Positions 2,451 to 62,885 of a stretch of DNA of 64,000 nucleotides are shown piece by piece. Where the stretch lies: positions 10,230,001 through 10,294,000 of the forward strand of contig OX485806.1 in assembly GCA_950295325.1 (NCBI GenBank), written 5' to 3'. A program made the translations under genes and the position numbers. Position 1 is the stretch's first letter. Every line of letters begins with the position of its first letter. The notes below the pieces were generated by a model that saw only the letters and a list, made by a program, of their open reading frames with translations, ran no database searches and was not told the origin of the DNA. The stretch comes from Polytrichum commune (lineage: Eukaryota; Streptophyta; Polytrichopsida; Polytrichales; Polytrichaceae).

Positions 2451-2629
2451 AATTTCAGCCTTGACATGTGTGTAACTTTGAGGAGCTTGGTTTCAAGGTT
2501 GGTCCCTCTTTTATTGGGTAGAAACATCCCCTTCCAACTCTGATCGGAAAGGCTTAAGAGTTACATTATCCCCCCATAAAACCTTGAAACCAAGCTCCTC
2601 AAAGTTGCACACATGCAAAGGCCGAAATT
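2451..2629. repeat. 50-bp inverted repeat with 79-bp spacer
   Basis: The arms at 2451-2500 and 2580-2629 are reverse complements with only a few mismatches (core gaggagcttggtttcaaggt). The pair could fold into a hairpin or be the remnant of a small foldback element lying against the LINE fragment. Confidence 0.75.
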
Positions 2630-3702
2630 CTTCTCCCCTGGCTTACCAAACTCCGATTCGAAACCGGATCGTTCAAACACATGTGGCGGCCACATGAAAG
2701 TGGTTCTCAAAAATTCCAATCCTCATCAATGTTTTAGCCCCACCACCCGGAAGCCGAACCAGAAGATGCGCTTCACAAAATTCTTCAACTTCAGTTAGCA
2801 ATATTATAACCAGATTTGGACAATTGTCAAGTTCGGGCAACCTGTCCAGTTTTTCCTTGCAGGTACTCCATCATGCCCCTACTAAGTTCAATTATTCTAC
2901 TGAACTCCTTAAAAGCGGAATTTTGGAGGTGTAAAGAGAGTCTTAATGGTGGCGGTGCAATAAGTGGAACTATCAGAAGCCCACCACCATATCGACTTCC
3001 CTAAATTGGAACAGCAGCAAAATTGAAATGCTTTTAGACTTTTAAAAAAAAAAATCTTTGATAAGTTCAACACACAGACTAACTTACCACCACGTACCTG
3101 ATGATATTATACAACTTAAAACTGTACTTAACCTGCCAAATTCATCACCAAGACATTCATCACCAATACACATGTGAAAATGAAACCTTTTATGATCAGG
3201 CTAGTAGGACAGATTGGATTAACAAGTCCTACAAAACAGCTTACCCACCGAGTAAGTTAAGTTAAAACATGTCTGGGAAGATTGAAGTTTCTCAACCTAA
3301 TTCAAGGAGTTTACTTCAAGCTTTGTGATATACAAAGTGATTACTTTTGAGGAGTTCACATCCTCTCGGAGTTTGCTTGCAGAATCTGTCAACTTTCGTG
3401 TTCATTTGCAAAAATTGATCGTCTGACATCTTCTTCACGCTCGTGAATCATGCGGGCAAAAAAACATCTGCACTGATGATGCATGCTTCCACTTGGTGAT
3501 TTAGGGGGTTAGGCTGTTGAGTTGTGAACTTCAGTGGTCTGTTTGTTTCAGTTCTCAATCACCATCGCCAAAATGTCACCAAAATAAATGTGGTGGATGT
3601 GATCATCCTTAAGTTTTTCGCAAGATCATCAGCAATGCAATCCTCCTAGTTGCAAAAATTGTTGTTCAAAGTTTTGGAGGAGTGATGATGGTGATGAGCT
3701 CA
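2630..3702. other. Spacer and 3' flank of the NYN-LOTUS gene
   Basis: I see no convincing gene here. Two open stretches of about 60 codons at 2613-2798 and 2816-3004 have no recognisable motifs. The part nearest 3702 should contain the 3' untranslated region of the minus-strand NYN-LOTUS gene. Confidence 0.5.
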
Positions 3703-11763: not shown

Positions 11764-14148
11764 AAAGTTGAAGCAAGGTGAGAACCATCCACATTTCAAT
11801 GACCAGGAAGTGACCAAGACGCCCAATTAATCTTTACACGATTTCATCTACCTCTATCTCTTATTTTGTTCAAGTAGTAATTCCAGTGAAATTGCATCTT
11901 GCTTGTTTCTTCAAACTACACAATGGAATTGAGTAAATGTAGGATTGTGCATCAATCTACCTACATCCCTTCCAAACCAGTAGAGTTACCCTTTAATTCA
12001 ACTAGAGGTTTTGGTCGGGAGTAAGTTGTTTGGCATACCCAAAAAAAAACGCGTGCAGTAAGTTTCCGGTACATACTTGGAGTCAGTATGGAGGTTTGAA
12101 CAAAGAACATTCCATAGACTATGAATGATTTTCCAACAGTGATGATTCCATACACCTCTCCACTGCTGCGGTTTTTGTTTGCATTGAGAAGCAGGAGTTT
12201 CTTTTGAAATATCTGAAGAGTATCCTACACACATACTGTTATTCTAAACCATGCAAGTGGCATGAACTGCTTGTAAACGCTTGCCATATGTGTATTTGCA
12301 AGCAGTGGTGGTTTTATGTTCTTGAATATTAAGGTCACCGGAAGCTCTCATGCCTTATCGATATTGATAAGATACCTTCAGAAAACACCAAGGTACATGG
12401 CCCTATTTGAAGGCATTTCCCAACTCCACAGACAATTTTTCCATTGGATCAAATTGGGACTTGTCTTATCCGATTATCAATTGTGATGAAGCACACTGAT
12501 TGCCATTTCAAGTTTCAGAATCGGAGTTGAGATGTAAAAGTTCTAGGAGGTCAAAGTGAAGATCTCATTTAGTGATCACATAGGCCATCCCAATTTTGAT
12601 GACAATTGAACCTGGAATGGTTATCAAAATAATTATGAGCACAAAGTTCAATCTCATCGTAACACATGTCATCTTTTTGGTGTCTATTCTTCACTATAAA
12701 CCTACCACCCAAATATAGTAATCCAATTAAGATGAGTGACCCGTGACATAAGGCCCCCACACCTTATGTTTCCTTATTGCATGCCAACACTGGAAGCCAT
12801 GATTCAATTTACTGACAGTTTGAGATTTTAAATTACAGGTAGAGAGGGAGGAAATGACTGAAGACCAACACTCAAAAACTTCAAGACGTAGCACTATCAG
12901 TTCATTGATTCGAAGAGAATGGACTGCAAAGCTTAACTTCTTTTTGAAGTTTTGAAATCCAAAATGCATGCTAAAGAAGTTTGGTTGATAATTTAATTTT
13001 CTAGTTGAAGCAACAACGAGAATGTATCTTGTTTTGTTAAACCTTTGTGACACCATTGACCAATTTGGTGTTTTCCTGCACATTTAAGATGACATGTATC
13101 CACGAATGGTAAATGTCTCAAGTCTTGGCCCTGGCTTGTCTGAACAGCACTTGTTTCACCAGGAAACTGTGTATAATTGTATATACTGCGTTTGAGTATT
13201 CAAAAATAGTAGTGTTGGTTTCATAGGCAAAAGGATTTGCAATGTGAGTGATATGTGCTTGTTGAGGTTTATCCTGGGAAGTTCATAAACAAGTTTCAGA
13301 CATCATCATTCATGGAAATTTTCCATTGTTGTCATCAACTACTAACCAGAAACTCAAGGCACAATGTGTAGATAGAAACTTCAAAATTTGACATGTTTAT
13401 TTTGTGAGGCCCACAGAAGCAAAATAGTAGCTTTCACCTTTTCACCCTCATTCTCCCTAGCATTTCATACTCTATACTTGTATTTTTCCACCTTGCCCAC
13501 TTCTCCTAGGATATGAAACACAATAGTCCACATGGTTCGCAAATTCAAATCAAGGCTGTAACCACTTCCCTCATAAATTTGGAGCTCACTGGAATATTTT
13601 ATTCATTATCAAAGTGAAGATTCTTGTGCTCATTATATGGTCATATAGATCCCCCATATTATTTTGACTCTTGAGCTGAGAATGATTATCATATTTTGAG
13701 CAAGCAGTCCAATCTCCTTTAAACACATCTTTTTGGCATCCATTCTTGGAGCCACACCAAACCACATAACTAGTCAAATATAGGTGTCTTAATAAGAAAA
13801 GTAACCGAATTAGGCACATCTATCTTAGTACACAAATCAGCAAGCAGCTTATATGTAATAGTTATGCCAAAAATAGACATGCCAAATTTTCAAATTACAA
13901 TGTGTAGTCTATTTCAAGTTAAAAAATTCAACCCTTCACACATGCAATTCAGAGTAAATTACACAATTTTCAACTCTTCACAGATCCAGTTCAGTGTAAG
14001 TTACAAGTTCATGACAATTCATACATGGATGCGTAGTCTCTTTCCTATGGGCAGAGCCAACAAATTGAGCGAAAAACCTTTCCGCCAAAGATTATTCAGC
14101 CACCACCAATTTGCAAATGCATCAATATGACAGATTGATGAATACAAA
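11764..14148. other. Convergent spacer with two R1 fragments
   Basis: This lies between the ends of the UBL-LOTUS and methyltransferase genes. Parts at about 12540-12740 and 13500-13830 match family R1 (caaagtgaagat near one end, cttttTggtgtctattctt and aatataggtgtctt near the other). I see nothing coding in the rest. Confidence 0.5.
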
Positions 14149-17938: not shown

Positions 17939-19231
17939 AAAGCGGTCTTTGTGATTTTGTTATGTAGCACCAAGTGGTGTATGATATCTTATGCACTTTC
18001 CACGTAGTGATTGCAAGATAACTACAACGTTTATGGTATTTGGTGTCACATACACTATATTTTTGTACATTATGTAATTTAGCCTAGCACATTGGGATAC
18101 AATTTAGCCACTACCTTTTGAGCCGTATTTTTAATGATAAGTTTTGATGATTTCATCTTCATATTCTATACTTAGAGTACTCAACACAATAATAGAACGT
18201 GCAATGAAAAAATATCCAATTTAAATAACACTTTGCTACTACTTCTAGGCTCTTGACCAAAAATATTTATGATTTTATGGTATATTGGAGCACTTCTTCC
18301 GTATACTTGACTGTGACTTGCTCCCCAATACCCAAAAGCATGAATCTTGATAGACCCAAAAATGAACCCTTTGTTTTGACCAAAAAGCAATCCTAGAACT
18401 TAGATGTTGTTTACAAAGATGTAAACAATCAAAATACAAAAATCTGGGGTCGACTTTCGGTTACACCTATAGGCAAAAATTCAACTTATTCACATCGCAT
18501 CCAAATAATAAATCCTTGCTATATACAATGCCACAAGGTGTCGGAATCCCCTTCACGTGCAACGGTAAAGCGGGCCTTATCTTACACCGGATGTCTCTAT
18601 TCGAGTGGTGTGTGGTTAGGTACAGGATGCAAGAAAGAACATGTGCTTAAAAGGAGATTGCATTACATGCTCAAAATATGGTAACCTCTCAACGCTCAAG
18701 AGTTAAACATTTTTTGGGGAGCACCTATATGATGATTTAATCAAACCAAGAATCTTCACTTTGACAAATGGATAAGATATTCAAATGAGCTCCAAAACTA
18801 GAGGTAAACGGCTACAGACATGATTTGGAATTGGCAATTGGCTCTCACTAAACACGTGTTTCACAACCTAGAAGAAGTGGGTGTCCATGTAACACCCACT
18901 AACCTTGACATGAAGCCATTCCAAACAACCAAAAAGTATCCACAAATCGGCTCATGTGAGCCTAGTTTATCAACAAAAACTTTGTGCAATTTACTGATAA
19001 TGCCTCTTTTGTGTACACTTTTGCATAGCTTTGATAATGCCAGCCGACTGTCTACCCTTTACCAAGTACGTGGCTACCTACAATTTCCTCTTTTACTTCT
19101 TGAGTGAAGAACACTCCCCGATTTTCTACAAACCTGTCCACATTAATTTCTTCTACCTTAATGTCACAAGTCTCCCACAAAACTTACTGGAACGACAAGT
19201 TGTGGATGATGATAATGATGAGATGATGATG
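17939..19231. other. Spacer with a further R1 fragment
   Basis: The part at about 18585-18670 (gagtggtgtgtggttaggta) and its continuation to about 18860 match R1 in reverse orientation. An isolated fragment of the R2/R3 type (tatggtatttggtgtcacat) is near 18031. No gene is evident. Confidence 0.5.
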
Positions 19232-32114: not shown

Positions 32115-35100
32115 TCAGGTTCTCCACCTGCCGTATTTTCCATCCGCAGCCGCGGTGCCTCCAAGAGAATTTCTGCGTGCCGGTGAATCCACGGCTCCGA
32201 TATCTGGCGACTTCTCTTTCAAGTGAGCAACTTTTGGACTCAAAACGCCGCGAGTCTGCAAAACCGAAAACTCCACCTTAGAAAATTAGGTTCGGCTTTA
32301 GTTAGAAATCGCATGAGTATGACCATATACTCGGGGCAAACTATAATTGAAATTCTAGTCAAGTTGAAAGGTGAGCTGTGAAATACGTGCAAAACAATGT
32401 TGGTTTTGATAGGGCAGACCCTTAGCAATAGGGACCTAAAGTTTCCAATCATGTGATGTTTTAATTGAAATGGAAAAACTGTTGATTCAGATTAGTTGAA
32501 TTAGATCCACATTAGGGAAGGTAAGGGCAGATTACTTGCAACAATAAAGGGATATGAAGTTTCAATCATGTGTAGTTCTTAATGTCTGCTCTGTTAGTGA
32601 GAGATTCACAGAGAGATGATGCCAGAAATAGAAATTACTTCAAGTAGACATAGCCCTCGTATGACCATCTAATGAGCACGAGGATCTTCAATTTGATAAT
32701 GAACAAGATTTTCATGTGAGCTCCAAAAGTTATGGGGAAAGTGGTTACGGCCTTGATTTGGATTTTCTAACGATGCAAGACCCATCCTACCTCATCGATC
32801 ACAAAACTCAACTACTGAATATTGGACTTGAGGTGAGACAAAAAGTCAGGACCATTACAGCTATCCTCTAATTCAAGATGAGTTTTGGTCAGGAGTTTCT
32901 TGTTTTGCATACAACACCTTCCATATTCGGTATTTTTTTGACACAGATTTGGAGGTAGTAAATAGTGTGGAGGTTTCATTGAACGAAGAACAGTCTACAT
33001 TGATTCATTTTGAGGTCAAACTCATTTTGGAATGCAATCAAGAGGTGACATGAAAATGAGTTTGGCCCTCAATGAACCTCGTGAAATAGTTTCCTCTTCA
33101 TTCAAATTCACACAATACTACCTCTAAGCAAGCACCATCACAAGTGGAAAGAAAGTAATTTAGTGATCTTGTATGCACAACAACCAAAGGAAATATCATA
33201 GGATATCTGCCAACTTCCCACGGAAAGTCCCATTGAGTTAGAAGGATAAAATCTAATATATGAGGTAAGTAAACTGTATGAATACCGAGTAAGATAAACA
33301 TATGAACTCCAAAAAATTACGAGGAATAAGGCTAAATCCTCGATTTGGATTCGCAAACCATCTCATACTAATCGCGTGTTTCATGTCCTAGGAGACGTGG
33401 GCTAAGTCAGAAAAAAGTAACCGTTTGAGATCCATCTACCTTATTGATTAAAAACTCAGCTACTGAATATTGACCGTGAGGTGTGACAAAAAGTCGTGAG
33501 CATTAGAGTTATTGAGTGCCATTGAATTAGGAAAATAAACTCTATTATATGACATAAAAATATGTGTACCTGGAATGCACTGTTTCGTTGTTGATGTTGT
33601 GTGTTGAGAGCAGTCTTGGGAGAATGATCGGTTCTTGGGGAATGATCGATTTTGGCTTGTTGACCTCCAAGTGAATACCGCTTCGGCTGTTTTCCAGTGG
33701 GCGACTCCACCAAATTTGCACTTCGAGTTTTGGGGTTACTTGAAGATCGGTATTTCGCTTTTGCAGACTCGGTGGGCGCCATGTAACGTGCTTTTGTGGG
33801 TTTCATCATCATCATCCCTGTTGGCAAGGGGCTGGTGTTGTCTCCGTTAAATTCTCCAGCAGCCTTCTCCCCATTTCTGTGCTCCCTGTGACCATTCGAT
33901 GTGTGTGCACTCGTAGAATCTGCGCGTTTTTTATTTTGTTTCCCATTTTTTTCCAGTTGGTGTTAATCAACAGCTAATTTTGCCAAAAGGAAGCGAAAAA
34001 CAGCGGTCTTCAAGGGTTGGTCCTCTAATAGGTGATTCCTTGTGATGTCCGTTTTTGGAATCACAGTTCATTAGAATTAGACTACTTTGAAATAATGGAT
34101 ATAGAAGCAACACCATCATTCAACATGGGTCATTCAACATCTCTTTCGAATAGTCTGCCAATGAACATATACTCATCAAGGGCGGCTTAAACCCAAGGTC
34201 TTAACCTGGATCCCATGGGAACTCCGAGGTTAAGCCACGTAAGGCAGGACTAGTATACTCGGATGGCTTGCCCTTAGGGGGCCCTCTAATTCTCGTGATG
34301 CCCGTTTCAGGACAAAATATAGATTTAGACCAACTCGAAGATGAAGCAACACCGGAATTCACATCGGTTACTGACAACATCAGGGTTCTCATCCTTTGCT
34401 TGAAAGGATTCAAGTGTTGTATATTGCCTAATTGAGGGTTAAACTCAATTTGGCATGCAATCAAGAGGTGCTAAAATGAGTTTGGCCCTCAATGAACCTC
34501 ACCCCCCAAAAAAAGGTTGCGCAACTTCACTCAAATTCAAAAGCTACCTCCAAGCATGCACCGTCACAAGTGGAAAGAAAAGAAATGATTGAAATTGTAT
34601 GCAAAACAACATAATGGGAAGATAATCATAGGGTACCAACTAACTCCTGACAAAAAGTCTCATTGAGATAAAAGAACAAACTCTAGCAATCACAAACAGA
34701 CCTTAGGATTATGATACCATCACAACAACAGCAACAACAACCTCATTGGAAAAGTTAGTTTTTTTTAATCAAACCTGAGGCAGACTGCTTGTGAGTGGTG
34801 GGACTGTTGACTTTAGTATGTCGGTGCAGAACACCATTTGCAGCTGGCGATTTCCTGGGTTTTCTCGACGTCGTGGATTCTGGTAACATAAGATGGTCCA
34901 TGGTGTTCGACAGATCATGATCCTCGCTCAAAAACCTCTCCGGTGGGGTTTCGGGCACGGGAAGTGACGTATCCGAGCCTTGTGGTGAAGGAGGAGCTAA
35001 AGGCAGAGAAGTATCCGAGCTGTGCGTAGGTGAAGAAGAACTCGCCACCGAGAAATTTGAGGATGAAAATTTCTCACTCGCCAGCTTCGCAGCTGAATTT

Positions 35101-38100
35101 GGAAGAGCTTCCGGAGACTCGAAAACTGTTTTTGCTGCAGGCTCCTCATGCTCATCTTGTATGACTTTTTCTTGGGTTTCTTCGTCCTCCTCCTCCCAAG
35201 CTGGATATTGTGCAGGCACTTCAATGGGAGAAGGTTTGATAAGGGAAAAATTATTATTACCGCTCTTTGGCGAAGTCGAAACATTATTATTACCAGCAGC
35301 TGATTCAACTGGAACCGGTAACGGTAACGGTAAAGGTAAAGGGTGGTGGTGTTGCTCAAAATGAGAAACATTGAAATGAGGGTCTTTTCTAGGAGACTGA
35401 GAAAGGGCTCGAGGAGAAATAGAAATATTTATGGCTCGGGGAGACATTGACTTAGCCCTACTACCAACTGGGCTAGATGGAAAGTTGCCAGAGTTATTAG
35501 TAGTAGTAGTTCCCACTGGGCTCATGGAGAAATTACCAGAGTCCCTCTTGTCCAACACAGCTCGGGGAGACGAATTCAAACTAAGGGCTCGGGGTGAATT
35601 GAAAATTGACTTAGTCGTTGCCTTTGTTGGAGTGTTGATGTCATGTGGACTCGTCATTGGGGAGCTAGTACCAAAGTATGACTCCTTCCAAGTGCTCGCA
35701 TCGAGCTCTTCCTTTTTTCCAGTCGTGTATCCTAAATTTTTCTGCATTGAAGTAGGTACAATTTCGTAGTAATTATAGTCTTTTCGGGAATTGGCGGACT
35801 GCTGCTGCTGCTGGGTTACTTCCCATGGCCTTGCGTAAGTCCATCGCTCGAGCCATGTCCAGCCCCAGTGTGGTTGGTCGGGTTCACAGTTGATGTACAG
35901 GGAGTTTTTGGATTGCGTGTTGTTCTTCTTCAGCTACAATATGCAAAAAAAGTTAATGTGTCATCAGAGAAAGTCCCAAGAGAAGAAAAAGAAAATGAGA
36001 AAAAGTTCCTGCAAAAAAGACTTATTATCTAATTCAACAGGACTTTTCGATGGGAGTTCGTACCCAATGATTTCCCATTGGTTGTTTTGCATACAAAATC
36101 AATGATTTCTTTCCACTTGTCGTGCTTGAAATCAAATGAAGAGCAACCTATTTTTGTTCAAACTCATTTTATATTGCCAAGAGGTGCTATGAAAATGAGT
36201 TTGGCCCTCGATTGAATGCTTTCATTCAGACCTCCACACCAACTCCAAGCATGGACCAAAAACTTGCCGAACATGGAAGATGTTTTATGCAAAGCAACTC
36301 CCGACCAAAAGTTAAGTTGAATTAAAGGATAACCTTTAAGTCCACACTAAGTTTAAGAAAAAACCTCCAAGTTGATATAAACATATGTAACTAAACAAAT
36401 CATTCTGAAAAACCGCACAAACTTCAAGCTGAAAGTAACCTAGTAGGTTCTTTGTTACCTGTTGAGAGAAGGCATAAGCCTTTGCGCGCTCTGCTTTACG
36501 GGCGCCGATTTCCCACCTGCTTCTTTCTGCATCTCTATCTTCCACACTGCCTCTGCTTGTATCCCAATGTCCATCCTGCAAAACAACAAAATTGCTCATG
36601 AGAGTATGCTTTAGAAAAAAACAGTCCATAATTTTCCTCAATTGACTAGAATTACTACTAAAAGGAAAAGTTTAACAAGGATACATACTCCAGCTTTGAA
36701 GCTAGGGCGTGATAATCGGAGCTGTCGATGGAGTTTGATGCTCTCCTGAATCGCTTGACCCTCTTTTGACCTCCGAAATTGGTGGCCACGGACGTGAGCT
36801 TGGACGCGTACAAGAGCTTGCATTGCCCGTAATGTTGTTGCAGCTTGTCTCCTCACTCGATGGCCTCGCACCAAAGCTTGCAGTCTTATCAACCCTCCCA
36901 ATGCCTAAGAATAACATCAAGAAGAAGAAAAAGCACCAAAAGTAATTAAGAAGTTGATTAAGGTTGTCGAAGCGGTTATTAGGCTCAAGGCCATCAAATG
37001 CCAGAATTCAAAGGGACTTTTTGTTGGTAAGTATGTTGACAGACAAAGAATTTCAACTTGGCAGTAATAATCTCATGGCACCAGAGTTATGAACAAAAAG
37101 TATGACCATGTAGCAAATTTAGCCATGAAAAAAGTATGGCCATGTAGTTATCTCTAACTCAACATGACTTTTGGTCAGGAGTTAGTTGTTTTGCATACAA
37201 CACTTTCCATGTTCGGTAAGTTTTGGGTGAGTGTTTGGAGGTAGTAGAGTAGAGGTTTGATTGAACAAGGAACATTCTGTATCGGCTCATTGAGGTTCAA
37301 ACCCATTTTGGCATGCGATCAAGAGATGCTAATCAAATGAGTTTGGCACTCAAAAAACCTAACAAAATAGGAACTGCTCTTTGTTCAAATTCAGAAACCA
37401 CACCACCTCCGAGCATGCATCATCACAAATGGAACGAAAGAAAGAAAGAGATTATTGACATTGGATGTAAAACAACCAATGGAAACCAACTTACTCCCAA
37501 CGAAAAGTTCCATCGAGTTGAAACGAAAATTCCACTGCTATAGTTTCAAAAGGTTTAATTGGCAATTGAAAATTTTACCAGGGGACCTTCGAAACGCTGT
37601 TGAATACTTGTGACTGCCGCCTCTGATTCCTCCTCATCCTCTTCACTCACATAATTAATCCTGTAATTGTCTTCACCATGTGCTGATTCAACGCCATTTG
37701 CAACAATTTCTTCTTCTTCTTGTTCGTCTTGTTTGTCTAAAAACGCTTCTTCATCAACCTCAATCACATCATCCCTCCTGATCTCTTCTTCATGATTATG
37801 ATTTTTTTTCTTCTCCAATTCTTCTTCTTCCACCACATCTTCTTCCTCTTCTTCCTCGTCGTTGTAGCCTCTGATTTCTTCTTCCATATGCTCCTCCTCA
37901 TTGAGGGACTGTACAGAATCCGCGAGACTTATCGCCTCCGGTATCGGCAAAGGTTGTTTTTGAGTATCACCATGCTCCGCCTCGTTGAATGTGATAGTTT
38001 CAAACGACGGAAGTGGAAGAGGGGTTGGAACTACATGTGTTGTGGATGATGTGCAGATGTTGCAGCTGGAGGCCGGACCTAATTTCTCATCTGTAACAGC

Positions 38101-38568
38101 TTTCTGCAAACAAAATGCAACAAAAAGAACAGCCATAGAAACGTCGTCAGACACAAACATTCTTCCATTGACAATTGGGATTTGGTCATGGTTATGGTCA
38201 ACAACAAGCACTGCAAACAATTTTGAGAGGTAGTAATTCATCATCAAAACTTCCTGTAATGCATCCACAAATCCAGGTTACCTTCAAGCTGATAGATCTT
38301 CAGATTCAAATCTCACAAAACGTTCAATATCGAACAGAAGGGTTTCTAAATCACTAGTACAGAAACACTTCAAGATGCAAGAAAGTATGTCCAAAAGAAA
38401 TGATCATTAAATTTAGCTGAATGCAGTTCTTTAATTTCCACAGGTGATTGTTTGACTGTAGTCATTCACTCATACCGAATGCCGATGGCTATGCTTCTCC
38501 TTGGACGGAGAGCGAAAGGCTTTCTTCACGGCATTGAACCACTTGGCAGGTTTATTCGATTTCCCCAT
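32115..38568 (-). CDS. IQ67-domain (IQD) calmodulin-binding protein
   Basis: Seven exons join in frame: 38568-38476, 38103-37579, 36904-36689, 36575-36459, 35933-34775, 33919-33570 and 32255-32115, giving 866 residues. The start [20 protein letters not shown] is the classic IQD N-terminus. A long acidic second exon follows. The IQ67 core is in exon 3 ([35 protein letters not shown]). Exon 5 holds the family motif [16 protein letters not shown] and Ser-Pro repeats, and exon 6 the DUF4005 motif [20 protein letters not shown]. The gene ends in [19 protein letters not shown] proteins bind calmodulin through IQ motifs and act as scaffolds on microtubules, membranes or in the nucleus. The first IQ motif is short and unusual ([14 protein letters not shown]). 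A stop read through exon 5 at 34755 is intron sequence. Four introns carry one shared foldback repeat. Confidence 0.88.
32870..33239 (+). repeat. Foldback family F, copy in IQD intron 6
   Basis: Outer arms: ttcaagatgagttttggtca at the left, with its relative ggaaagtcccattgagtt inverted at the right. The core aaactcattttgg ... aaaatgagtttggccctc is itself a small palindrome. It is within intron 32256-33569. Confidence 0.75.
33250..33450. repeat. R1-related fragment in IQD intron 6
   Basis: tgaactccaaaaaattacg and cgatttggattcgcaaacca resemble the middle of R1 copies near 32700 and 18780. It is a partial copy without ends. Confidence 0.4.
34433..34670 (+). repeat. Foldback family F, left-truncated copy in IQD intron 5
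   Basis: It has the core (aactcaatttggcatgcaat, aaaatgagtttggccctcaa) and the right arm (aactcctgacaaaaagtctc), but lacks the left outer arm. Same orientation as the other copies. Within intron 33920-34774. Confidence 0.75.
36031..36323 (+). repeat. Foldback family F, copy in IQD intron 4
   Basis: Arms aattcaacaggacttttcga and, inverted, aagttaagttgaatt. The core aactcattttat ... aaaatgagtttggccctcg is conserved. Within intron 35934-36458. Confidence 0.75.
37155..37519 (+). repeat. Foldback family F, copy in IQD intron 2
   Basis: Arms aactcaacatgacttttggt and, inverted, gaaaagttccatcgagtt; internal gttttgcatacaac pairs with tggatgtaaaacaac. Within intron 36905-37578. Confidence 0.75.
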
Positions 38569-40151
38569 TTCTGTGTGTCTGCAGCTCAAACTTTTAGCCC
38601 TTGGTCGAACACCTGTTGTGTATATCAATCAAATTATTAATCAGACTTCCAAGGTTAGATACTTCAAGCATAGCATATTACCAATTTTTTAACTAATTAA
38701 GCATATTAATGATATTTTACTTGATTGATTGTTCAACAGTGAGATGACGAATATACATCAAACATTACTGACATCCAGTCTACAGTATTCTAGCATACAG
38801 GAATAGTCTTGCACTCAAAATGTGCACAACATCATCAGGTCCTCAACAACCCAAATTTTGGGTGAAATCATGGCACTGGAGGTGTCTAAGCTGAAACCTT
38901 GAATCCCTCAACAAGATGCTCATCATGCAACATAAAATGATGAGCAAGAATGCACACTCTAAATGCGCATAAAACATATTCAGGTCCTCAACACCTCAAA
39001 TTTTTGGGCGAAATCATTGCATTTGAGGTATATAAGTTGGGACCTACAATTCCTCTGCAAGATGCTCACCAAGCAACATGAAATGCTGAGCAAGAATGCA
39101 AACTCAAAATGCACATTAAAACATCATCAGCTCCTCAACACCTCAAAATTATGGGTGAAATCATGGCAGTTGAGGTATCTAAGTTGGGACCCACAATCCC
39201 TCCACAAGATGCTCATCAAGCAACATGAAATGCTGAACAAGAATGCACACTCAAAGTGCACACTAAAACATCATCAGGATTCAGGTCCTCAACACCTCAG
39301 AGTCCACTCAAAAACTTTGGAGTGAAGTCATGGCGGTAGGTTGAAACCCACACAAATTCCTTCAGCAAGATACTTGCTCATAATGCAACATGAAATGCTG
39401 ATGTTTGAGTAATAAGGATGATACATTTTGTGAAAAGTCGTAAGTAAGGGAAAGACTTACAGACGTGCTTACAGAAAACGTACAAATTGTCAAACTGAAG
39501 CACTTGTGCGGACAGACAGTCATTGTACTTCTGAAAATGGAAGAAACTTGAAATACAGCAGGCAGGCAGCAGGTTATATTTACATTTGAGGCTTATTTAT
39601 GTGCAAGCCGATCGGTGCCTATAGTAGCATCTGCACTGCATTATTTCTTTACTAACTTAGTATCTCCAACCGACTGGCATCACCTCCTGCCGAAGAACTG
39701 CACATCCAAAAAAAACAACAACCAAACATGGAAGTTAAATCCTAGGTCCCAAATTTTCAATATCAATATGAAAAATAAGGAACAGACATCAATATATGAG
39801 TACCAAGATTCCCAAAAGCACACAACATGAACCAGTTCAAGTGTGCGTGTGTGCGGTTTCTCCATTTTGTCAGAGTGTAAAAATACAAATAGTCAAATGT
39901 AGGAGACTTGGTCTTTTGAAAGAACAGAAGACCAAGTTTAACAGAACAGAGCAGCAAGCAACGATGTCTGAGAAAAATGTCTGCAAAATGCTGGTAAAAC
40001 GGGAATTTTTTGTTGTTGTCACCACCAGGTAAAGCCAGAGCGGTGACAACTATCTTTGATCCTCTGTTGAAACCTACGAAAACTTTGATCAATGTAGGGC
40101 TTTCAGTGGCATTTGTCTCGGTTCTCTGTAATGTAGAACAAGGCGAGAGCG

Positions 40152-57216: not shown

Positions 57217-58239
57217 CACACAAGACAAGTCACCACACAAAGCTACATTACGTGCATGTTAGTCATGTACATTATTTGTTTCTTGTACAAATGTCCTTGT
57301 GCCACTTGGCATGTTGTAATTGGCTAAGAATACAATTACATCCTATGTGGTACTTGAAAAAAATTGTTGCATGGGTTTAAGAAACTCGAACCGCAATACA
57401 ACGCAGTATTTACTCGGAGTTGTTGTCTTTTCATCAAAAGTTATCAGTTTCATAGTCTCTGAAAGTCAATGCCAAGTGGCACATCAGAGATGACTCCAAA
57501 TTCATAGACAAAAGTATATAATCTATAGACATAAAAAGAAAATTGACATGGTGACTAGGTCATATCGAGGGTTCAATATGAAGTTCCTTTGCATTCTCCA
57601 ATCATAAATGACTTACACATTCTCCAATACATTCCGTAATAGGTAAAGGTAGTTGGGTCTTAAATGGACTTTCCACTTTACACCCACTTCTTGTAGGATG
57701 TGAAAGCACACAATTAGAGAAAGATGGTTAGCAAATCCAAATCGGGCATGTAGCCGTTTCCCTTGTGATTTTTGGACCTTGTGTGGAAAAAAATAAAAAT
57801 GAATATCATATCGTTCTCTTTACATGATCATATAGGTCTTCCCAATTATGTTGAGTATTGAATCCAAATTCTCATATAGTGCAACCTTTTTTTTTTAAAC
57901 ACATGTCTTTTTTGTCATGTCCGTTCTTAGATATCCACCTAATCACATATCATTCAAACATAGGTGTCCACTGAAGATGACATTTCGAATTAGGTCCGTT
58001 TACCTTCTAGAAGGTTTGACCTCCTTTGATGTGCAATAACTGAACAAGTAGAAGTTTGGCCTATGTTGATGTGCAAATACTAGGTGGTTGAATAAACATC
58101 ATGTTTGAACAAGACATGTCTATCTTAGTATCGACCATATCCGTTTGACCATGTTGGACACAAAAATGAGGCCAGAGGTCCGTGGTATCTTAATAAGTTC
58201 ATCGATTTAGAAGGTGACAATGGAACGGGTTACTACATC
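57217..58239. other. Spacer with an R1 copy
   Basis: About 57700-57985 matches family R1 (aatccaaatcgggcatgta, acacatgtcttttttgtcat, aaacataggtgtcc). A short inverted pair gtgccacttggcat / atgccaagtggcac lies at about 57311 and 57470. Confidence 0.5.
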
Positions 58240-59912: not shown

Positions 59913-62885
59913 GTTTAGAATTTGGCCACTTTCATCGGAGGTTGGTCGTGTCACACAAGGGTCAAGTGTTGCTCTTGATTGACAACATCATGAATCCTTC
60001 TTGATAGGGAGAGTTCATCTCTTTTCAAAATTTGTTGCTACTAGTAAGGATTTTTTTGTCCTACTCACAAAAACCTCGCTAAACTTAATGGACTGCAGTT
60101 GTGCCCGTTCATTTCACGAGATGTATACAAGACATAAGTTCCTATCAAGAGGGAAACTCTCCCATTGTTGTTGGGGCCAGTTGTTGGATTTATTTTGGGT
60201 GTACTATGAATGCATGGGTATCAAACCCTCAACAGTAGGGCATGTTTCACACCAAAGGCATCAAACCATGGCTCTTTAAATGACCATGGTACCCCACTTT
60301 TTGGATGAGTCTTTTCTTGGATCCGGAGCTTAATGTGAACCCATCCTTATATAATTAGCAAATTTAAATGAAGGCTACAACCCATTTTCGTTGGAGTTCA
60401 TATGAATATCGTCTTTATTATCAAAGTGAAGATTCTCTTTCTCCTTCTACGATCTACTATAGCCCCCCCCCCTTTATGTTGACTATTGAAATCAAAACTT
60501 TTGAGAAATTTCTAACACTTAGCCCAATCTCGGTTAAATGTCTTTTTGGTGTCTATTTCTATATACAAATCTAACCACACGCCACCCAAACATAGGTGTC
60601 TCATGAAGACAAGTAATAAAAACTAGGCTCGCTTACTTTATAACTTGTTGTTCTCAAGATACTCTATTCTATTAACAAATTTCAACCATCCTAGCACTTA
60701 AGTTCTATATTTGCCTCTACTTCCTATAGCGATCCCCCTTGACACTATCGCATATATATTTAGAGATAGAATTTATTTACAAGTATCACATCACGAGTTA
60801 AAAATATAAGTACATGCAATCGCCAATGAAAAGAAAGAAGAAAGGAACGTCAAAGTGTTGTTACATGAACATGCGATGTTCATTTGCCATCTCCAACCCA
60901 TGTATGTGTGGGCTTGGGGAGTGGAGATGGTTTAGTGCCTGCGATTTTGTAGTTAGACTAGTGATTAGTTTTACAGTTGATATTATTGTTGTTATTGTTA
61001 CTTATATTAGTATTTGGAGCAGCAATATTATCATACAGTCCCTATATAGTCCAACAAATAACATTTAAATTTGACCTCTCTCCCTTCCATCCTCCTCCTC
61101 CTCCTCCTCCTTGTGTTTTTCTTCTTTTTTCTCCTCCTTTCTACCTTATGCAATCTTTGGGTCATCCCTTGCCTTCATATACATCATGTTCAACATCGCT
61201 CTAGCATAATCTAAAATGTTATTTAGTTGCTTCATGGAAAAAGTAGCAGCATGCAAAAGGAAACCAAAAAATCAAGAAAAATGGAAGACATGTATCTACT
61301 AGTTAACACAAGATATTCTACATTGACGGCATATATTGTTTGAAGCAATTTTCAATTAAGTTTCAATGTTCATCATCGTACAAAAATGTGCACATGACCT
61401 AATAAATCCCGACCCCGATTCTCTCAACATGACTTACCCTTAGCTTTCATACTCCTCATTGCCCTTTGCTCTCATTGCAGGGTGCCCTTTACAACTTCAT
61501 TCTCTGCTATAGGTTTCTTTCTCTACTCTAGAATGTAGTATCAAGAAGTCTCAAGTCTTTCTTCCAGCTAGACCATCAAGTTGATAGTAGCCTTTATCAT
61601 ACAAATGCCACTACACTCCGTCACTATAAGGAATCGACATTTTCGGCACCCCCTTGATATTCTTCTAATCCCCATAAGCCTTTGAGTTCCATGGACTTTA
61701 AAGTCAATTTCATTCCATTGGTTGTTGCTATATAACTTCTAAATACTATAAGAGCACCTCAAGCTAACAACCTCAATAAAATAAACAAGTCACACATATT
61801 TTCGACAATGATTCCGGCCTTCAACCCTCCCCTCCAAAAGGAGAACACAAAAATTTGATCCTGCTCTTGGTCAATGACATAATTGGCCAAATATTGATCG
61901 ATTCAATCTACAAAGGAAAAAGTCCACCAAGACTTGGGGCCAAGTCATGCTTGATTTTTAGGCGTGTGATTGGCTATGACCCTTTCCTCTTGCCACCTTC
62001 ATAGGGGTTGTGCTTTCACTTACCAAAATGTCCTAAACCAACAAAACATGCAATCCTTTAAATATAAATTTTGTGTGTAATGTATAATGTATATAATAAA
62101 GTGTATGTGTCTATTGAATTAAGTTTTATGAATTGACACAAGAAGCATATGGATCCTAGGTAATTATACTATGTTGCTGAAAATTTATTCTACATTCCTC
62201 AAATCATTGCAATTCAGTCATATTAAGAGATTGCATTGATCTTTAACTGATGTAGGATGATTGCCTAGGACTTGTATGCTGAAATTGAGAGTTGATAAAA
62301 TAAATCATTTTGAAACTCAAACACCCCTAGTTTACATTATAATATCAAGTTGAGGTGCATTGGGTCCCACAAATGAAGACCTATGACTTTAATGTTGTGA
62401 TGAGATAAGTTTCATCCTTAATCCATCGCTAAGATTGAAGATTATAACGGTTTGGTCTGAGTACGCTTGCAATCTTGAATGTGTGATTGTGCTTCACTTT
62501 AAGAGAGTGGAAAGGTCTTTCATGTATAACTTACTAGGTATTTCCCAATACTCCGGAAAAGTTGTTAAATGTGGAACATGTGTTTGGTGTTTACTTATAC
62601 ACGGTATAGATATCACCACAAGGATAACATGGTTTCGTCAATGGTTCCACCATTAAGTGGTTACTAAATTTGTCATGAATATGAATAGACCTACTATCGT
62701 CATAGATAGATAGATGCACCAACTTCCAATGGAGACTATCTTCATGGATCATAAATCCATCAAGTGGCCAAGAACCAATGATAGGCCTACTTGGGCCATG
62801 TACATCATCTCCTTGATGTAATGTATGTTTGATATGTACTTCAACAACAAGAACTTGAAGAAATTGTATATGGTTTGGATTTTCT
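59913..62885. other. Gene-poor spacer with an R1 copy and a gene-fragment echo
   Basis: About 60380-60640 matches R1 (tatcaaagtgaagattct, gtctttttggtgtctatttc, aaacataggtgtctc). About 61545-61640 matches part of the relic at 43760-44279. (CTC)n near 61090-61110. Nothing else is recognised. Confidence 0.45.

What the first reader, a model, noticed from the sequence alone, without database searches (positions are those of the whole stretch)
32115..38568. Same foldback sequence in four of six IQD coding introns, all in one orientation
Introns 2, 4, 5 and 6 each hold one copy (37155, 36031, 34433, 32870) of a foldback family that I do not see elsewhere in the 64 kb. All copies share the core aaaatgagtttggccctc and the same orientation. 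Independent random insertions would rarely land once per intron, in one orientation, in one gene. Local spread between introns, gene conversion, or introner-like behaviour are alternatives.
Basis: partly seen in the sequence, partly recalled or inferred. Interest (0 to 1): 0.75.

Follow-up and report, generated by a model that had tools for sequence, protein, structure and literature searches.

The report
Foldback transposon copies crowding plant introns
Four introns of one plant gene each hold an old copy of a small hairpin-shaped jumping-DNA family that occurs more than a thousand times in this genome and sits in introns unusually often, so the pattern is a mostly ordinary transposon story rather than introns copying themselves.

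Summary
The repeat is real: introns 2, 4, 5 and 6 of an IQD gene (32115-38568, minus strand, 866-aa spliced ORF) each hold one foldback element of a ~358-bp family. Three claims fail. A fifth, partial copy lies outside the gene at 11982-12116. Orientation is not uniform: the arms of the intron-4 copy are reversed, only its apex agrees. The four are not close relatives: 74% identical to each other, 77% to sampled copies elsewhere.

The family is a high-copy MITE: 1,136 apex matches genome-wide, 557 forward, 579 reverse, control 0. The suspected intron enrichment is supported: 20 of 28 sampled copies are bracketed by same-strand coding-like ORFs, against 24% of control positions and 0 of 7 copies of another repeat. 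Clustering is family-wide: 11 neighbour pairs under 10 kb among 127 elements, 0.4 expected. Introner behaviour is not supported: elements lie 53-602 bp from the splice sites (coordinates), and match boundaries in paralogues fit older introns. The target duplication is weak (2-3 bp), so the superfamily stays open.

The parts
32115..38568 (-). IQD gene, seven coding exons (38476-38568, 37579-38103, 36689-36904, 36459-36575, 34775-35933, 33570-33919, 32115-32255), 866 aa
   Evidence: spliced ORF with GT-AG at all six introns; DUF4005 E 4e-8
37147..37525 (+). foldback element c2 in intron 2 (36905-37578), near full length
   Evidence: nhmmer 305 bits, model 5-356; plus orientation
36019..36334 (-). 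foldback element c4 in intron 4 (35934-36458), near full length; arms minus, apex plus (apex flipped relative to arms)
   Evidence: nhmmer 234 bits on minus, model 4-362; arms match c2/c6 on minus, apex 36156-36212 on plus
34414..34676 (+). foldback element c5 in intron 5 (33920-34774), left third missing
   Evidence: nhmmer 182 bits, model 124-357
32858..33246 (+). foldback element c6 in intron 6 (32256-33569), near full length
   Evidence: nhmmer 306 bits, model 3-357; transcribed strand folds 3.9 sd better than shuffles
33504..33544 (+). probable internally deleted remnant of a further copy in intron 6, joined to a diverged duplicate of c6's left flank (33428-33508 against about 32778-32860)
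   Evidence: read by eye; BLAST 80% over 35 bp; flank duplication 82%; not found by nhmmer at E 0.01
11982..12116 (+). partial copy outside the IQD gene (model positions 2-133)
   Evidence: nhmmer 74 bits, E 7e-22; not bracketed by same-strand coding-like ORFs

Best explanation
The four sequences are old, separate insertions of one non-autonomous cut-and-paste DNA transposon family (a MITE). The element is about 358 bp, has no long open frame, folds along its whole length into a hairpin, ends in AGAGTTATCC...GGATAACTCT, and inserted at short A/T-rich sites (WTA/AWT around the ends; 2-3 bp apparently duplicated). A transposase supplied elsewhere (inferred, not sought) spread more than a thousand copies in one or a few bursts, and they have since drifted apart as a star. 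Insertions accumulated in introns because intron DNA is A/T-rich and accessible in active genes and tolerates insertion, while exon hits were removed (inferred). Genes with several large introns therefore collect several copies; this IQD gene, a dynein heavy-chain gene (L023) and a third gene (L004) show it. The elements are spliced out with their introns (inferred).
For: Whole-genome copies: 1,136 apex matches with up to 2 mismatches, 0 in the control pattern; 146 exact 25-mers, control 0; 2172-2792 first-look candidates per query, 40 scored each. Consensus 70% self-complementary, -203 kcal/mol, longest stop-free run 49 codons. Four IQD copies: mean pairwise identity 73.9%, to other sampled copies 77.4%; siblings rank 26-41 of 42; best genome hits of c2, c4, c5 and c6 lie elsewhere. 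Gene bracketing 20 of 28 against 24% (threshold 2), 10 of 28 against 12% (threshold 4); 0 of 7 for another repeat. 8 of 28 ~3.3-kb loci hold at least two copies, one of them (L009) only a fragment at the locus edge; 11 pairs under 10 kb among 127 elements, 0.4 expected. L023: three copies among exons of one dynein gene. L004: two copies in what read as adjacent introns, by ORFs and splice sites.
Against: The target-site duplication is weak: 3-bp AWT exact in 9 of 24 against 4.4 expected; best single positions 14 and 17 of 24 against 9.5 and 10.9, among 132 pairs tried. No autonomous partner was sought. The tree is a star with no well-supported branch. Holding the four IQD copies together does not lose likelihood: it gains 10.3 units over the free search (p-AU 0.71); pairs c6-c2 and c5-c2 gain 12, while four random quartets change by +5.9 to -5.2. 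Looser counts of shared variants are also a little high in the four (p 0.17 and 0.12). So some shared ancestry of the four is possible. Pfam gives a modest contrast: 14 of 28 copy loci (13 without a coiled-coil hit) against 5 of 28 control segments, several hits below Pfam's own cut-off, and only 40 of 76 copy ORFs tested, picked by hand; fitting domains on both sides 5 of 28 against 1 of 28, p 0.19, L004 giving no domain. Secondary copies are bracketed in 4 of 10 only, and the fifth window copy is not.
Confidence: 0.86

Rival explanations
1. Local spread inside the gene: one element entered and its copies hopped to neighbouring introns, or gene conversion passed the sequence between introns.
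For: Four copies in 4.7 kb; clustering is a family-wide habit. A hop made during the original burst would leave little mark in a star phylogeny. Holding the four together gains 10.3 likelihood units over the free tree, more than any of four random quartets.
Against: Siblings are not closer than strangers (73.9% against 77.4%); best relatives of each lie elsewhere; 13 pairs in other clusters are 81.2% identical against 80.2% between loci; the rarest shared variants are not in excess (p 0.46); the free tree scatters the four.
Confidence: 0.1
2. Introner-like element: each insertion made a new intron, so the element and the intron arose together.
For: Strong association with introns; a GRAS gene in L019 has an intron holding a copy (that GRAS genes usually lack introns is recalled).
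Against: In the four IQD introns 209-925 bp is not element, and the element lies 53-323 bp from the donor and 85-602 bp from the acceptor (coordinates; first pass). In L019 the splice sites lie about 255 and 47 bp from the element. Seven other loci each give two separate matches starting near the exon-3 and the exon-5 start, which fits older introns 2 and 4. Introns 1 and 3 exist without a detected element. PMC9860276 (passages seen) reports no introners in land plants.
Confidence: 0.03
3. The hairpins are kept because they do something in the introns, for example as small-RNA precursors or splicing regulators.
For: c6 and c4 fold 3.9 and 5.0 sd better than shuffles as transcribed strand; weak antisense excess, 16 against 8.
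Against: The four copies have drifted by K 0.14-0.23 from the consensus, as expected for sequence without constraint; c5 lost a third. The antisense excess is not significant (p 0.15).
Confidence: 0.05

Closest known systems
BRAMI-1, Stowaway MITE of Brassica (PMC3626606, passages seen)
   Same: short high-copy foldback element with terminal inverted repeats; the 71 genic copies there all lie in introns
   Different: TA duplication is clear there, 2-3 bp and unclear here; only 71 of 697 copies there are genic, while 20 of 28 sampled copies here are bracketed by coding-like ORFs. The sequences were not compared
Carrot and sugar-beet MITEs (PMC8227079; PMC12804786; passages seen)
   Same: MITEs in introns; carrot intronic Stowaways usually spliced out; sugar-beet and rice Stowaways described as relatively enriched in introns
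   Different: in carrot introns hold 1991 of 11674 Stowaway and 1343 of 6308 Mutator-like copies; the share here looks higher, though by a cruder method
MITEs of 207 plant genomes (PMC12550479, passages seen)
   Same: gene-associated MITEs, open chromatin proposed as the cause
   Different: in three flowering-plant families they favour gene flanks first, then spacers and introns
Introners (PMC9860276, passages seen)
   Same: non-autonomous DNA elements associated with introns, some with TIRs and TSDs
   Different: introners make the intron and carry or recruit its splice sites; these elements lie inside introns away from the splice sites

Membership tests
MITE | short (under ~600 bp), many copies, no coding capacity | tested here: met
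   358-bp consensus, longest stop-free run 49 codons; 1,136 apex matches
MITE | terminal inverted repeats | tested here: met
   first 20 bases of the two consensus ends agree at 19; 267 of 382 columns self-complementary
MITE | target-site duplication of 2-11 bp | tested here: inconclusive
   24 complete copies: best agreement at the element ends over 2-3 bp, weak; none of the best offsets listed exceeds 4 bp (lengths 2-10 tried)
MITE | related autonomous transposon supplying transposase | not tested
   no search for an autonomous partner was made
Stowaway / Tc1-mariner MITE | TA duplication | tested here: inconclusive
   TA stands at most ends but cannot be told from part of the inverted repeat
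Stowaway / Tc1-mariner MITE | termini beginning CTCCCTCC (recalled) | tested here: not met
   termini are AGAGTTATCC
Tourist / PIF-Harbinger MITE | 3-bp TWA duplication (recalled) | tested here: inconclusive
   the 3-bp reading is AWT, exact in 9 of 24 against 4.4 expected
Introner | element ends coincide with intron ends or splice sites | tested here: not met
   53-323 bp to donor and 85-602 bp to acceptor in the four introns (coordinates)
Introner | intron absent where element is absent (new intron position) | tested here: inconclusive
   seven other loci show separate matches starting at query residues 16-23 (exon 3 starts at 23) and 129-145 (exon 5 starts at 134), which fits shared intron positions; whether those introns hold an element was not read

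The most novel reading that the evidence does not exclude
This is a DNA transposon that actively seeks introns or transcribed gene bodies: its insertion machinery, not only selection, puts most copies into introns, several per gene, perhaps with a slight preference for the strand antisense to the gene.
Probability: 0.2. Interest if true: 0.6.

Novelty: new member of a known kind. Interest (0 to 1): 0.3.

Why it matters
It shows how a striking regular pattern (one copy per intron) can come from a common intron-biased MITE family plus clustering. The size of the intron bias, in what looks like a non-flowering land plant (inferred from a dynein gene, and recalled knowledge), makes the family a usable case for asking whether such bias comes from where transposons land or from what selection leaves. 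It also weakens a candidate introner in land plants, where PMC9860276 reports none (passages seen).

Tried and rejected
Rejected: introner, recent local spread, gene conversion (see rivals). Rfam and tRNA scans of the window gave nothing. A tree of 43 copies had no well-supported branch and the clade test had no power: four random quartets were not rejected either. A codon score alone was too weak to call exons singly, so it was used only as a both-sides statistic against controls. Literature searches for a moss with seven chromosomes, a Polytrichum genome and dynein in plants gave nothing that I used, apart from one MITE survey listed. Searches were for MITE, introner and intron-enrichment papers; no paper was searched for by this sequence, so I make no claim that the family is unpublished.

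Bias to know: the 28 copy loci are best matches to c2, so less diverged copies are over-represented; the codon score was trained on the window and the 20 random loci, not on the copy loci. The 127 elements were typed from the hit lists with the IQD copies left out and hits within 250 bp merged.

Full report
OBSERVATION. The gene at 32115-38568 is on the minus strand. Its seven exons join into an 866-aa ORF with GT...AG at all six introns. Pfam finds DUF4005 (E 4e-8); the IQ67-like stretch and the name IQD rest on the sequence and on recalled knowledge. Introns: 38104-38475, 36905-37578, 36576-36688, 35934-36458, 33920-34774, 32256-33569. A profile of the family built from 32 copies, the four IQD copies among them, finds elements in introns 2, 4, 5 and 6 and a fifth partial copy at 11982-12116, far outside the gene. 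The same profile found nothing in one mononucleotide shuffle of the same sequences. A ~41-bp remnant at about 33504-33544 was read by eye.

ORIENTATION. Aligned to one reference copy, c6, c5 and c2 are plus and c4 is minus. In c4 the long arms match c2 and c6 on the minus strand, while the apex 36156-36212 matches on plus: the hairpin tip is flipped relative to its arms, as recombination between inverted arms would do (inference). The element is nearly its own reverse complement, so a core match alone is a weak guide to strand.

WHAT IT IS. The consensus is 358 bp, 59% A+T, with termini AGAGTTATCC...GGATAACTCT, 70% self-complementary along its length, -203 kcal/mol when folded, longest stop-free run 49 codons. 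c6 and c4, as transcribed, fold 3.9 and 5.0 sd better than shuffles. In the window's own genome (407.8 Mb, 64 contigs) an apex pattern with up to 2 mismatches matches 557 times forward and 579 times in reverse, with 0 for the reversed-pattern control; an exact 25-mer matches 78 and 68 times, control 0. In 20 random 10-kb regions there were one copy and one fragment, both in L034. This is a high-copy MITE.

TARGET SITE. In 24 complete copies the best flank agreement, over end offsets and lengths of 2-10, is at the element ends over 2-3 bp (AWT exact in 9 of 24 against 4.4 expected); none of the best offsets listed is longer than 4 bp. Single positions agree in 14 and 17 of 24 against 9.5 and 10.9 expected, the best of 132 pairs tried. 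This argues against hAT- and Mutator-type duplications (8 and 9 bp, recalled) but does not decide between Tc1/mariner and PIF/Harbinger.

SEPARATE INSERTIONS. Among 43 copies the six IQD pairs average 73.9% identity, IQD to other copies 77.4%, and all between-locus pairs 80.2%. Each sibling ranks 26th to 41st of 42. In genome searches, with 40 candidates scored each, the best hits of the four lie elsewhere: c2's at 75% on C3, c4's at 73% on C1 with no sibling listed, c6 has 25 hits better than c2, c5's best is at 78% on C1. Divergence from the consensus is K 0.138 (c5), 0.152 (c6), 0.154 (c2), 0.225 (c4). Shared rare variants: p 0.46 at the strictest cut-off, 0.17 and 0.12 at looser ones. The tree is a star without well-supported branches, and the free tree scatters the four. 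Against my reading: held together they gain 10.3 likelihood units over the free search (p-AU 0.71), and the pairs c6-c2, c5-c2 and c6-c5 gain 12.0, 12.2 and 6.8, while four random quartets gain 5.9, 0.3 and 1.0 or lose 5.2. Recent local copying and gene conversion are unlikely; a local hop during the original burst is not excluded.

INTRON ENRICHMENT. For 28 copy loci (best matches to c2 with 1.5-kb flanks) I asked whether ORFs with coding-like codon use lie on both sides on one strand. At threshold 2 this holds for 20 of 28, against 24% of control positions in the 20 random loci; at threshold 4 for 10 of 28 against 12%; resampled p is 0.002 or less at all six thresholds. A second dispersed repeat of this genome gives 0 of 7. 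Secondary copies in the same loci, many near a locus edge, are bracketed in 4 of 10, and the window's fifth copy is not. Pfam at E 0.01, on 40 of 76 selected copy ORFs picked by hand and on all 40 control ORFs: 14 of 28 copy loci (13 without a weak coiled-coil hit) and 5 of 28 control segments have a hit, some below Pfam's own cut-off (p 0.04 for 13 against 5). Hits on both sides that fit one gene: L011 (GAF and HisKA, one gene by inference), L013 (PC-Esterase), L019 (GRAS), L023 (DHC_N2), L029 (kinase), that is 5 of 28; control 1 of 28 (L044, UCH), p 0.19. The bias is clear in the codon test and only suggestive in the Pfam test. In carrot, introns hold 17-25% of the four main MITE groups (from Table 1 of PMC8227079, passages seen).

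CLUSTERING IS A FAMILY HABIT. Eight of the 28 loci, each ~3.3 kb, hold two or more copies, L009 only by a fragment at its edge. Among 127 scored elements outside the IQD gene there are 11 neighbour pairs under 10 kb; 0.4 are expected if uniform. If copies were confined to a fifth of the genome about 2 would be expected (my arithmetic), so some clustering beyond intron bias remains. By contrast, among the 93 exact-core places checked the IQD pair is the only close pair besides one palindrome. In L023 three copies lie among dynein heavy-chain exons (DHC_N2 positions 292-374, 70-165 and 1-68 in ORFs 83-523, 2158-2559 and 2599-3012); a middle exon, read by eye, puts them in two neighbouring introns. 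In L004 two copies in opposite orientation lie in what read as adjacent introns, from ORFs and splice sites without a Pfam hit. Neighbouring copies in clusters have the same orientation in 6 of 10 pairs; against the bracketing gene strand 8 are sense and 16 antisense (p 0.15).

NOT AN INTRONER. With the element ends and the introns, the four introns keep 295, 209, 592 and 925 bp of other sequence, and the elements lie 53, 124, 98 and 323 bp from the donor and 242, 85, 494 and 602 bp from the acceptor (introns 2, 4, 5, 6; one search gave slightly different values from earlier intron ends). Introns 1 and 3 have no detected element. In the genome, seven other loci give two separate matches, one starting at query residue 16-23 (exon 3 starts at 23), one at 129-145 (exon 5 starts at 134), and an eighth gives the latter alone. 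This fits shared, older introns 2 and 4; whether the paralogues' introns hold elements was not read.

VERDICT. A new family of a known kind: an intron-biased, clustered, full-length foldback MITE.

Noticed in passing
38824-39263 (part of a further unit to about 39400): Tandem repeat of about 147 bp, three units, two of them 69% and 88% identical to the third, just upstream (5') of the IQD gene.
   Followed up: no
32660-32775 and 33291-33445; also 13483-13645, 18728-18881, 57646-57773, 60391-60446: A second dispersed repeat (matches of 56-195 bp), with copies in the window and in six of the 20 random regions; none of the 7 testable copies is bracketed by same-strand coding-like ORFs.
   Followed up: partly
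about 32778-32860 against 33428-33508: About 80 bp of intron 6, up to the left end of the foldback element, is duplicated within the intron at 82% identity.
   Followed up: partly
36019-36334: In copy c4 the hairpin tip is inverted relative to the arms, suggesting recombination between the arms of a foldback.
   Followed up: partly
L023:83-3012: A dynein heavy-chain gene (DHC_N2, best E 2e-37). Flowering plants lack dynein heavy chains (recalled), so the genome is probably from a land plant with motile sperm.
   Followed up: no
G000 hits (for example C7:21564080, C2:16426168, C6:22552856): More than ten hits cover the same query stretch with equal or nearly equal scores, and many are paired with the same arm in reverse close by: this looks like a more recently amplified, symmetrical subfamily.
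   Followed up: no
L019:829-2239: A GRAS-domain gene is split by an intron (about 661 bp) holding a copy; GRAS genes usually lack introns (recalled). Splice sites lie away from the element.
   Followed up: partly
copy loci: Copies are antisense to the bracketing gene in 16 of 24 cases, and in three of the four IQD introns by arm orientation; not significant but worth a genome-wide count.
   Followed up: partly
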